Assembly: GCA_020854255.1 (NCBI GenBank)
Contig: JADZFV010000114.1
Coordinates: 1-32,643 of the forward strand
DNA from: Candidatus Melainabacteria bacterium
GTDB taxonomy: Bacteria > Cyanobacteriota > Vampirovibrionia > Obscuribacterales > Obscuribacteraceae
DNA length: 32,643 nucleotides
Direction of reading: 5' to 3'
This document shows positions 20,667-25,220 of this stretch, one piece after another (positions within the stretch are counted from its first letter, which is position 1; the number at the start of each line of letters is the position of its first letter). A model generated the notes under the pieces. It did not search any database. It saw only the letters and a list, made by a program, of their open reading frames with translations, and had not been told where the DNA came from. The position numbers were made by a program, and so were the translations under genes.

Positions 20667-21182
20667 AATTTCCAAGCTCAAAACGGATATCTGGGCACGG
20701 ATCATAACACCATGACCGGGTTACATGCCTGCTCGGCAAACCGGCGGACACGCCTGATCCATCAAAATTAGTTTTATCCGAGGGTGGATAGTAAAAGTCT
20801 ATGGCTTACAGAGGTAGGGATTAGAGGAAACGTTAAAAAGGTAATTTTGAATTTCCGCTTCTGTGACAATCTAACCTAAGAGTCCAGAAACATTGACAGG
20901 CTAAGGATACAGCGTACTTACAAACCGACAAATACAGCCGCTTTTGTACCCACATTCCGACGAATCCCGGCTATCAAGGGTGATTGGGTTGACAGTTTTT
21001 GGACACGCCCGTGCCATCACTACCGGTACTGCCGTACCCATTTCCGCACTGGGTCAGGGATTTCTAATCCCATCCTTCTTGACATCTTGGTGCCTTTACT
21101 ACTAGACTGGTACGTAAGCATGCAAATCAGCTCAACAGTGTATGTTCTGGGCTTTGCGGATTTGATGCTTAAGGTGATAACA
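20667..21182. other. Intergenic region upstream of the DUF255 and DUF378 genes
   Basis: About 515 nt without a gene. On the plus strand it holds three TTGACA boxes (20893-20898, 20989-20994, 21079-21084), of which only the last has a reasonable -10 partner. A small hairpin, GGTAC-TGCC-GTACC, lies around 21026-21039. No tRNA or regulatory RNA was recognised. Confidence 0.4.
21079..21108 (+). promoter_or_regulatory. Candidate sigma-70 promoter of the DUF378 gene
   Basis: TTGACA (21079-21084), an 18-nt spacer and TAGACT (21103-21108), 75 nt before the ATG at 21183. The -35 is perfect and the -10 matches at four of six positions. The transcript could continue into the folded non-coding region downstream. 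Confidence 0.5.
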
Positions 21183-21395
21183 ATGAAGAATCTTGAGCTA
21201 ATTGCATTTGTTCTTTTGCTCATCGGTGGAATCAACTGGGGCTTAGTAGGGATGTTTAACTACAACGTAGTAACAGCGCTATTGGGCGACGGCACCACAA
21301 TGACGAAAGTTGTATACGGCATGGTCGGATTGGGCGGACTCTACGAAGCATTTAAATTCTTCCGTAGTAAGTGCTCGTCTTCGGCCGAAAGCTAG
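21183..21395 (+). CDS. DUF378 small membrane protein (YuzA-like)
   Basis: A protein of 70 aa with two membrane helices. The first, LIAFVLLLIGGINWGLVGMF (residues 6-25), carries the family signature GGINWGLVG; the second covers about 41-58 with VVYGMVGLGGLY, the other conserved block of DUF378. The tail is short, with one Cys. The function of the family is not established. AAGGTG lies 8 nt before the ATG at 21183, which matches the usual start of the family; the frame also runs 32 codons upstream but without a start signal. The 3' side is followed by about 640 nt of non-coding, strongly folded sequence. Confidence 0.93.
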   Translation: MKNLELIAFVLLLIGGINWGLVGMFNYNVVTALLGDGTTMTKVVYGMVGLGGLYEAFKFFRSKCSSSAES

Positions 21396-21434
21396 GCATC
21401 AACAAACAACAGGTAACTTAAAAACTTAGAAGCA

Positions 21435-21907
21435 GTGCTTTCTGAGCACACTTTAGAAACGCGAAAACCTCCGCGCGTTTGCAAAGGCCTGCGCATCTGA
21501 AAAACAGATGTGAGCGGTCGAGTGTGTGCATGAGCCAGACTTAGGTGTCTTGCCTAAACGCAAGATTTCTCATTCCTGCGACCGAAACTTCGGTGGCAAA
21601 TCACCTGTGTGCGGGCGTTTTCATTACGGTGAAAACGTCCGTGCAATAGTTTGAACCGAAACTGCTCTGCAATGGGCAGGTCACTATGTTAACGCTCTAT
21701 CATGGAGCCGGCGCCATGTCTAATGTGAGTTGCCAAAGCAGCCACATTTCTGAAACACTTGCATCCTACTATTGAAATCGCAAAGACCGATCGAAACCTC
21801 TCTCCTTTGATCGGATTTCTGGGAAGAAAAAATCGCAGGGCGGTGTTGGAATCGGTGAACCAACCCCGCTCTTCGCTTTGGGGAGTAAAGGCATGACACA
21901 TTTTTTT
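21435..21907 (+). ncRNA. Candidate large structured non-coding RNA, about 470 nt
   Basis: There is no coding signal on either strand but a dense series of hairpins. GTGCT/AGCAC (21435-21449). AAACGCG/CGCGTTT (21457-21480). CGCATCTG/CAGATGTG (21492-21512). A nested set: CGGTCG/CGACCG (21515-21584) enclosing ATGAG/CTCAT (21530-21573) enclosing TTAGG/CCTAA (21541-21557). A 16-bp stem (21608-21623 with 21630-21645). ATAGT/ACTAT enclosing CTGCTC/GGGCAG (21646-21687). CATGG..CCATG (21701-21718). CCGATC/GATCGG (21787-21814). A 10-position stem with one mismatch (21840-21869). Several helices contain G-U pairs in plus-strand RNA that would be A-C mismatches on the other strand, so plus is the transcribed strand. 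Seven T at 21901-21907 may end it. It is unlike RNase P RNA, tmRNA, SRP RNA or riboswitches known to me. It could be a long 3' UTR of the DUF378 gene. Confidence 0.55.
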
Positions 21908-22039: not shown

Positions 22040-22522
22040 TTAGATGCGGACGGCGTTCGGCACTGGATTGAAAAGTAAGTTTCTCGGCGGTGCCTTCGGC
22101 GCAGCAAGCGCGACTTCGATTGGAAAGATTCTGAAAATGCCGTCTCGTCCACGCAGCCAGAGTTTGCCGTCAGGAGCGACAAACGGCTCGCCATCGATGT
22201 CTCTGAGGATAGTGCCGGCGTTATTGATATGGCACCATTTCTGGTCGCGGTCCATCGTCAGGCGGGTTTCGTCCGGCAAATAGATACAGGCTAGTTTTGC
22301 AGGAGCCCCTGCATACTCGTACAACAAGCGCATGCCGTCCTTCGATTCGAAGCTGAGCGCCTGTCCATTCGAGTTGGAAATTACAATCGAGCCATCCAAC
22401 AGTCTCGTTTGTACATTTCCGCCTGTGTATTCGCAGATGGAATTTCGGTACACATAACGGATGCTGCCATCGCTATCCACGGTGGCCATGAAATGATCGG
22501 ATGCTGATCCGGAGATTGCCAA
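22040..22522 (-). CDS. Hypothetical protein, 160 aa
   Basis: Not a recognised family. The composition is rich in Gly, Asp, Tyr and Trp with short repeated turns (DSDGSIRYVYRN, LDGSIVISNSNGQ, KDGMRLLYEY, DRDQKWCHIN, PDGKLWLRGRDG). That looks like a beta-rich fold of YD/Rhs-like or WD-like strands. Such modules usually sit at the end of longer proteins, so this may be a fragment or a single-domain relative. There is no signal peptide. The TTG at 22522 has AAGGCGGT closely upstream and is preferred to the ATG at 22489, which has none. It stands alone next to the folded non-coding segment. Confidence 0.6.
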   Translation of the reverse strand: MAISGSASDHFMATVDSDGSIRYVYRNSICEYTGGNVQTRLLDGSIVISNSNGQALSFESKDGMRLLYEYAGAPAKLACIYLPDETRLTMDRDQKWCHINNAGTILRDIDGEPFVAPDGKLWLRGRDGIFRIFPIEVALAAPKAPPRNLLFNPVPNAVRI

Positions 22523-22748: not shown

Positions 22749-25220
22749 CTAAGCGGCAACCTTCGCTTTGACTGTGCAATCCCACAAAAGGAAGAGAAAT
22801 GCCAGAAGATAGCAGGCGGCGCCGCACCAGAAGGTGACAGTGATGCCGAAGTTCAAAGCAATAGCCACAGCCAACACTGAAGCACACACGGAAGTGGCTC
22901 CATTTATTCCCCAGAGCCATGGTGTCAGCTCACGCTGGGCGCCACCGGCCATCAGCATGCCAATCGGAAAAGCCATACCCATATAGAGTCCCAGCGGAAA
23001 GAGAAGCGCCACGGCAATGGCAATGCGCGCGGCAGTATCGGCACCCGAGAAGTTCGCAATCAACATCGGCGTGATGGATCCAAAGATGACAGGGACAATA
23101 AGAAGCGCACCAAAGCGCGCCACAGGCGAATTGAAGCTCGACATTTTCTCAGTTTTGGAAAGACTGTTTGTTGTAAAACTGCCCAGTCCGCTGGCAAGAA
23201 GCAGGGTGAAAAGCACCACAGACAATCCATAAACCGGGTGCCCGAGAAAGACGATCAGCCGCTGCATCTGCGAGATTTCGACGAACATGAAGCCCAGCCC
23301 GATCATGCCGAAATACATCAAGAGCGGCGCCGAGCCTTTGAGGGGTGCCGATTTGATGCGCAACAAAAGCGGTATGACGATGCACAGCGACGTCAGGAAT
23401 ATGACTGTTATGGTCAGCCAACCGAGCACACTTACAGCCATTGGATTGTGGCTCATGACACCGTTCGACCAGAGCGCAGCATTGAACATGTCTTTGAAGC
23501 GCAGCATGTGGAAGAAGTAAGGACTGTCGTCATTGGGCGGCGAGATGTTGACGGGAAAGCTGGCCAGAAGGGGCGTCAGATCTTTAGCCTCGGCGATCTT
23601 CGAGAAGTTCTCATCTATTGCTTTCGTCGGACTGAGGACGATTTCAAAGTCGTTTTCTTTTGCAAATTTGGAAATTTTCTCGAGGTCTGCTTCGCTAAAA
23701 GGCTTCTTGCTGATCATTAAGGTGCCTATGCCGTCCATGCCTCGACCACCCTGCGCCCCCTTCATGGCGGCAACAATGACGATGTTCTTGCGCGTATCCT
23801 CCACGCCTTGATCTTTCAAGGCCGCTGTCGCCAGTCCAACTAATCGATACATCTCAACGGGTCGATTCTTGAAATACCATCGAGATATAGTGAGGACGCC
23901 GTCCGGCTCCAGGTGGTTTAAAAAGCTGCGCCACGCCTCTACCGTGTAGAGCGAGTGCTCCGTCAATACGAATGCACCGGCTGCAGTGGCGGCAAACGTG
24001 TCAATCAGCGAAATCTGAATGATATCAAACTTGTCTTTCGAACGCGCTATGTAGCTGCGCGCCTCGTCATTGGCGAATTTGACATTCGGATAGCGATCCA
24101 GGTGCCCTGTGTAATCGCCGAAAGCATTATTTACTGCATAAATAATGTTGTTGTTGATCTCAATGCCTTCAATCCACTTTTGTTTGAATATGAGCGCGGA
24201 CAAAACGTCACGTCCGCCGCCCACGCCCACGATGAGCATGCGAGCATTCGGTCGAATGTAGTGAACGATGTTGGTCAAATCGCGCTTCAGATGCTCGACT
24301 TTGCTTTCGTCACCATCGAATTTCGTCAGCCAGGTGTTGGCGCCGGCGTCGATCATCAGCTCGAGTTCGCTGACTTTCTTGTCTTCTGGCCACTTGCTCG
24401 TCAATCCCCATGCGTAGGGGCGATGCAATTCATTGGGGTCACCGGCAACTTTCACACGGGAAAATGAGTTCCACTTCTCGAACAACGGCGTCGGCTCGAT
24501 GTAACCGTGCACCCACTTCAGCCTGATGATCGGGTTTTGTTGACTGGCCTTCACAGAATTCGCAGTAGCGAATGCGATCAAGCCAATAGCACAAACGAGA
24601 GAAGCCAGGCTAAGAGCGCCAAAACGTTTTACAAACTCCGACTTTCCAAGCGTAAAGAGAAACGCCCCCACCGCCGCAAATCCGGCGATGAAGAAAACCG
24701 CAGACGGCCCATCTACATAATTGAGCAGGGCGCCCAGAAGAATGCATCCGGCAGCGGCACCGCAAAGGTCAAAGGCATAGAGTTTTGAAACCTTCTGGGT
24801 GAACTTGGTCAACGCCAGACAGACTGCAATCCCGCTAAATATAAATGGAATCGAGATCACGACGAAAGTTGAGCTGACGTGCAACAGCCCCTGTTCCCAA
24901 GTAGCGCCGGAGGGTATGAACGGGACGAGCAAATGAAAAACAAAGCTCAAGATTATGGAGACGGAAAAGGCAAGCGAGCTGAGTGCAAGATGCTTCAGGG
25001 TCATGTCTTCGCGAAAGAAATTCGGCAACAGGTAGACAATAATGGCACCCACCGTCATACCGAACATGGCAATGGAAATAGCCATGAACGCAAAGTGGTA
25101 CCACATGGTGACGCTGAAAATCCGGGTCAGCAAAATCTCGTACATCAGCGTAGCCATTGCTACACTGAATAACCCGAAATAAATCGGACCGGTCACTTCG
25201 ATTGAGTCCTGATTTGCCAC
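22749..25220 (-). CDS. Membrane-embedded spermidine-synthase-like protein
   Basis: A membrane protein of 823 aa with a central cytoplasmic methyltransferase-fold domain. Residues 1-225 hold about six membrane helices; 320-560 form the Rossmann domain with motif I VGVGGGRDVLSALIF (331-345), acidic EGIEINN (351-357) and SLIDTFAATAAGAFVLTEHS (404-423). A second membrane bundle of about eight helices follows (600-815). This is the long spermidine-synthase-like family. In true spermidine synthases the block after motif II reads DxTD; here it is SLID, so the first catalytic Asp is replaced by Ser at 404. Aminopropyl transfer is therefore doubtful. The start is a GTG at 25220 with no clear Shine-Dalgarno. 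It is divergent from the esterase gene over about 140 nt. The substrate is unknown. Confidence 0.85.
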   Translation of the reverse strand: MANQDSIEVTGPIYFGLFSVAMATLMYEILLTRIFSVTMWYHFAFMAISIAMFGMTVGAIIVYLLPNFFREDMTLKHLALSSLAFSVSIILSFVFHLLVPFIPSGATWEQGLLHVSSTFVVISIPFIFSGIAVCLALTKFTQKVSKLYAFDLCGAAAGCILLGALLNYVDGPSAVFFIAGFAAVGAFLFTLGKSEFVKRFGALSLASLVCAIGLIAFATANSVKASQQNPIIRLKWVHGYIEPTPLFEKWNSFSRVKVAGDPNELHRPYAWGLTSKWPEDKKVSELELMIDAGANTWLTKFDGDESKVEHLKRDLTNIVHYIRPNARMLIVGVGGGRDVLSALIFKQKWIEGIEINNNIIYAVNNAFGDYTGHLDRYPNVKFANDEARSYIARSKDKFDIIQISLIDTFAATAAGAFVLTEHSLYTVEAWRSFLNHLEPDGVLTISRWYFKNRPVEMYRLVGLATAALKDQGVEDTRKNIVIVAAMKGAQGGRGMDGIGTLMISKKPFSEADLEKISKFAKENDFEIVLSPTKAIDENFSKIAEAKDLTPLLASFPVNISPPNDDSPYFFHMLRFKDMFNAALWSNGVMSHNPMAVSVLGWLTITVIFLTSLCIVIPLLLRIKSAPLKGSAPLLMYFGMIGLGFMFVEISQMQRLIVFLGHPVYGLSVVLFTLLLASGLGSFTTNSLSKTEKMSSFNSPVARFGALLIVPVIFGSITPMLIANFSGADTAARIAIAVALLFPLGLYMGMAFPIGMLMAGGAQRELTPWLWGINGATSVCASVLAVAIALNFGITVTFWCGAACYLLAFLFLLWDCTVKAKVAA

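What the first reader, a model, noticed from the sequence alone, without database searches (positions are those of the whole stretch)
21435..21907. Possible new large structured RNA class between DUF378 and an orphan gene
About 470 nt lacks coding signal but packs roughly ten hairpins, including a 16-bp stem (21608-21645) and a nested three-helix element (21515-21584). G-U pairs occur in the 16-bp stem (three), in CGCATCTG/CAGATGTG and in CTGCTC/GGGCAG; read from the other strand these would be A-C mismatches. Selection on plus-strand RNA explains this better than chance palindromes. I recognise no RNase P, tmRNA, SRP, 6S or riboswitch signature.
Basis: partly seen in the sequence, partly recalled or inferred. 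Interest (0 to 1): 0.75.

Follow-up and report, generated by a model that had tools for sequence, protein, structure and literature searches.

The report
Structured RNA downstream of DUF378
Downstream of a small membrane-protein gene in an uncultured non-photosynthetic relative of cyanobacteria there is a real, folded RNA region that no database knows; it is best read as a long regulatory tail of that gene's message plus a conserved hairpin module at its end, and it occurs only in one genus.

Summary
The region is real and structured. It has no Rfam match, even at E<=10. Its plus strand folds far better than shuffles (z -5.3; minus strand -1.8). Homologues lie at the same place, directly 3' of DUF378, in 5 of 8 genomes of the genus, with no credible match elsewhere in 289 genomes of the class. 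Eight helices survive with compensating changes (330/356 cells paired; 16 pairs with double changes, shuffles mean 8.9, maximum 15). It is not one uniform large RNA. Three conserved hairpins follow the DUF378 stop (A). A fast-evolving middle follows (B); its only conserved unpaired motif, AUCACCU, complements the DUF378 ribosome-binding site. A strongly conserved 140-nt end (C) has promoter-like spacing, a CU-rich-loop hairpin and a terminator-like hairpin usable on both strands. A sixth genus member keeps A and lacks B and C. Best reading: a structured DUF378 3' UTR acting on its own start site, as in icaR, closed by a possible small-RNA module. Transcription, RNA boundaries and function are unshown. 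In passing: a better-supported, covarying 5' leader hairpin, always on DUF378, in 22 genomes of the family. New RNA, known kind, narrow distribution.

The parts
21079..21108 (+). Promoter of DUF378: TTGACA - 18 nt - TAGACT
   Evidence: Pattern scan; the same arrangement precedes DUF378 across the family.
21113..21182 (+). 5' leader hairpin of DUF378 (AAGCAT/ATGCTT, CAAATC/GATTTG, AGCTC/GGGCT) ending in the ribosome-binding site AAGGTGAT (21171-21178)
   Evidence: Covariation score 0.242 against shuffled 0.149 (sd 0.015), 0/500; covariance model R2 finds it once per genome in 22 family genomes, at the DUF378 start where the DUF378 position is known.
21183..21395 (+). DUF378 gene (70 aa); first 28 codons almost free of third-position change
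   Evidence: Pfam PF04070 E 1.8e-18; third positions variable 3/28 against 24/43, Fisher p 1.4e-4.
21435..21512 (+). Block A: three hairpins, H1 21435-21449, H2 21457-21480, H3 21492-21512; start of the DUF378 3' UTR
   Evidence: Kept in all six genus genomes that have DUF378, including G007; double changes in H2 (1 pair) and H3 (3 pairs).
21547..21644 (+). Block B: hairpins H5 21547-21566, H6 21577-21598, H7 21609-21644 (16 bp)
   Evidence: H6 has 8 of 9 pairs with double changes across five genomes; sequence identity only 29-66%.
21600..21606 (+). AUCACCU, complementary to the DUF378 ribosome-binding site AGGUGAU
   Evidence: Best duplex site for the ribosome-binding site in all five genomes; pair probability 0.85-0.96 in four, 0.08 in the window's own genome; ATCACCT absent from all 28 other DUF378 3' regions.
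21741..21772 (+). Start of block C: invariant GCCACATTTCTGAAACA, 9 variable bases, then TAnnAT (TACTAT here, 21767-21772); promoter-like
   Evidence: Alignment A1: spacer length fixed while its sequence varies; the combined motif is unique in the genomes. Promoter activity not shown.
21787..21814 (+). C1 hairpin CCGATCG/TGATCGG with CU-rich loop AAACCTCTCTCCTT
   Evidence: All 35 cells pair on the hand alignment; one compensated pair T-A to C-G; on the MAFFT alignment alone covariation is not above shuffles.
21838..21871 (.). C2 hairpin GGGCGG-T-GTTGG/CCAAC-C-CCGCTC; terminator-like on both strands (minus-strand tail AUUUUUUC)
   Evidence: Nearly invariant; U-rich tail on + in G003 and G006, on - in G005; the convergent gene lies downstream.
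22040..22522 (-). Convergent gene of unknown family (160 aa)
   Evidence: No Pfam match; conserved in all genus homologues of the locus.

Best explanation
21396-21735 is the long structured 3' untranslated region of the DUF378 message, transcribed from the conserved promoter at 21079-21108. Three hairpins protect or punctuate its start. Further on, the exposed motif AUCACCU (21600-21606), held between hairpins H6 and H7, pairs back to the ribosome-binding site AGGUGAU (21172-21178) of the same or another copy of the message and so lowers DUF378 translation, as the 3' UTR of icaR mRNA does in Staphylococcus aureus. The message or an internal start runs into block C, whose last hairpin (21838-21871) ends transcription from DUF378 and from the convergent gene. 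Shown: structure conservation, position next to DUF378, complementarity. Inferred: co-transcription, regulation, direction of effect.
For: Homologues always sit directly 3' of DUF378. Nothing resembling a promoter was found between the DUF378 stop and block A. Helices covary. The ribosome-binding site's best duplex partner in the whole 390-480 nt is the same AUCACCU site in 5/5 genomes, although block B is only 29-66% identical. Folding the full transcript pairs the two with probability 0.85-0.96 in four of five genomes. ATCACCT is absent from DUF378 3' regions of all genomes without this RNA. A 5'-3' UTR pairing that blocks translation is an established mechanism (PMC3868564).
Against: In the window's own genome the predicted pair probability is only 0.08. 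The duplex energy alone is no better than shuffled sequence (10-71% of shuffles do as well). G006 has AGCACCU, with no compensating change in its leader. G007 has the leader and ribosome-binding site but no such motif. No expression data exist for these uncultured bacteria.
Confidence: 0.42

Rival explanations
1. Block C is an independent trans-acting small RNA of about 100 nt (start near 21780, end near 21880): its own promoter (GCCACATTTCTGAAACA - 9 nt - TAnnAT), a 5' hairpin with a CU-rich loop that pairs with Shine-Dalgarno sequences of other messages, an A-rich linker and a terminator hairpin. Blocks A and B are then the DUF378 3' UTR or spacer.
For: C is the best conserved block (71-91% against 12-33% just after it). 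The spacer between the invariant box and TAnnAT keeps its length but not its sequence. The loop CTCTCTCCTYT is invariant but for one site and complements AGGAGAGAG. The nuoJ ribosome-binding site GAGGAGAGAG matches it in G000, G005 and G002.
Against: No -35 hexamer of the TTGACA type. The nuoJ match is lost in G003 and weakened in G006, which have the RNA. Covariation in C rests on a single compensated pair. The terminal hairpin's better U-tail is on the opposite strand.
Confidence: 0.27
2. An ordinary intergenic region between two convergent genes: terminator hairpins and palindromes, with no regulatory role.
For: DUF378 (+) and the 160-aa gene (-) converge here; C2 is terminator-like on both strands; much of block B is poorly conserved; G007 does without B and C.
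Against: Terminators do not explain H6, rewritten in 8 of 9 pairs with pairing kept, the invariant GCCACATTTCTGAAACA and CU-rich loop, or z-scores of -3.3 to -5.5 over the whole length.
Confidence: 0.17
3. A single large non-coding RNA of 400-480 nt folding as one unit, like OLE, ROOL or GOLLD in style.
For: Continuous strand-biased structure over 390-480 nt in five genomes; no known family.
Against: No conserved long-range helix links A/B to C; blocks evolve at very different rates; block A exists without B and C in G007; lengths vary from 392 to 482 nt; one genus only.
Confidence: 0.12

Closest known systems
icaR mRNA 5'-3' UTR pairing (Staphylococcus aureus; PMC3868564)
   Same: A long 3' UTR holds a C/U motif complementary to the message's own Shine-Dalgarno region.
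   Different: Other gene, phylum and motif (AUCACCU, not UCCCCUG); here only predicted, with weak support in the window's own genome; RNase III cleavage not tested.
alpha-r14 / NfeR1 small RNAs with anti-Shine-Dalgarno loops (PMC10746234)
   Same: A hairpin exposes an invariant C/U-rich motif able to pair with Shine-Dalgarno sequences.
   Different: One such hairpin, not three; loop CUCUCUCCU, not CCUCCUCCC; no sequence relation and no confirmed target.
OLE, ROOL and GOLLD large ornate RNAs (PMC12286853)
   Same: Several hundred structured nucleotides, no known coding, unknown function.
   Different: Those are widely distributed and conserved along their length; this one is confined to a genus and in blocks. 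No Rfam match to any of them.

Membership tests
icaR-type autoregulatory 3' UTR | 3' UTR motif complementary to the Shine-Dalgarno region of the same message, conserved among homologues | tested here: met
   AUCACCU/AGGUGAU in four genomes, CACCU/AGGUG in the fifth; same best site in 5/5.
icaR-type autoregulatory 3' UTR | The pairing is favoured in the full transcript | tested here: inconclusive
   Pair probability 0.85-0.96 in four genomes, 0.08 in the window's own genome.
icaR-type autoregulatory 3' UTR | Pairing reduces translation and gives an RNase III substrate | not testable with these tools
   Needs RNA or a reporter assay.
Trans-acting small RNA (block C) | Own promoter | tested here: inconclusive
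   TAnnAT at fixed spacing after an invariant box, but no standard -35; no sigma-70 pattern hit there.
Trans-acting small RNA (block C) | Intrinsic terminator at its 3' end | tested here: inconclusive
   Conserved hairpin; plus-strand U-tail good in G003 and G006, weak in the other three; minus-strand tail stronger.
Trans-acting small RNA (block C) | Target pairing conserved with the RNA | tested here: not met
   The only shared candidate, nuoJ, is matched in 3 of 5 genomes and lost in G003. Only one seed pattern was tried.
Any Rfam family (RNase P, tmRNA, SRP, 6S, riboswitches, OLE, ROOL, GOLLD) | Match to the family's covariance model | tested here: not met
   No match at gathering score in the window; nothing credible at E<=10; no tRNA or tmRNA; 6S lies elsewhere in G002 and G006.
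Large ornate non-coding RNA | One long RNA conserved end to end | tested here: not met
   Block-wise conservation; A without B and C in G007.

The most novel reading that the evidence does not exclude
The DUF378 transcript is a compact multi-part riboregulator: a family-wide 5' leader hairpin, a ribosome-binding site that a genus-specific 3' UTR closes by long-range pairing, and a 3' end that is released or separately started as an anti-Shine-Dalgarno small RNA. This would be a new RNA family in uncultured non-photosynthetic Cyanobacteria.
Probability: 0.15. Interest if true: 0.6.

Novelty: new member of a known kind. Interest (0 to 1): 0.38.

Why it matters
It adds undescribed structured RNA to a lineage (Obscuribacterales) for which my literature searches found no RNA study, and links it to DUF378, a widespread protein of unknown function. 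The family-wide leader gives a concrete, testable regulatory element for that gene. If the 5'-3' pairing is real, it extends a mechanism described in S. aureus to a distant phylum.

Tried and rejected
Known RNA: Rfam at gathering score and at E<=10, ARAGORN, and 6S in six genomes - rejected. Coding: in block C the four substitutions around C2 are spaced by multiples of three and look synonymous in one frame on each strand (SQGGVGIGEPTPLF and SGVGSPIPTPPC). Rejected because G003 has a +2 indel, the frames meet stops, and conservation stops at 21878. Wider homologues: DNA search of 99 genomes, covariance model R1 over 289 genomes of the class, exact pattern over GTDB, and R1 over all fetched DUF378 loci found only the five genus members; class hits at E 0.0025-0.09 were taken as chance for that many genomes. 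Small-RNA target: GAGGAGAGAG before ATG; nuoJ shared by three genomes but not by G003 - not accepted. Regulon of the C promoter-like motif: no convincing second site; the G007 site lies within an apparent coding region. The sister genus g14 has its own non-coding stretch after DUF378 but no homology to this RNA. Papers: two DUF378/Obscuribacter searches and one on structured RNA gave nothing on this locus.

Full report
Setting. The window is contig C114 of a 6.19-Mb draft genome, 90% complete. Related records that carry the RNA are named Obscuribacterales, Melainabacteria or Cyanobacteria MAGs, so the organism is most likely in the Obscuribacterales, a non-photosynthetic lineage of Cyanobacteria (inference). 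DUF378 (21183-21395, PF04070) faces a convergent 160-aa gene of no known family (22040-22522, minus). The finding lies between them.

Noticed in passing
window 21113-21182: A 5' leader hairpin of DUF378 with compensating changes, found once per genome in 22 genomes of the family, at the DUF378 start; not in Rfam. Better supported than the finding itself.
   Followed up: yes
window 21183-21266: First 28 codons of DUF378 nearly lack third-position change among five species while the rest varies freely (3/28 against 24/43, p 1.4e-4).
   Followed up: partly
window 21844-21865: In the C2 stem the mismatch changes as a pair: T.C in G000 and G005, A.G in G002, G003 and G006; never a standard pair.
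   Followed up: no
L095, L096, L101 (G000, G005, G002), just upstream of nuoJ: The nuoJ ribosome-binding site reads GAGGAGAGAG in three genomes and differs in the other genus members.
   Followed up: partly
L036-L038 (G043, G037, G020), downstream of DUF378: The sister genus has its own non-coding stretch after DUF378, with the shared motif GTTCTAGCTGA..AAAAA.ACAAC, unrelated to this RNA.
   Followed up: no
window 22752-25220 and 22040-22522 (minus): The 823-aa multi-spanning protein and the 160-aa protein next to the RNA have no Pfam match.
   Followed up: no
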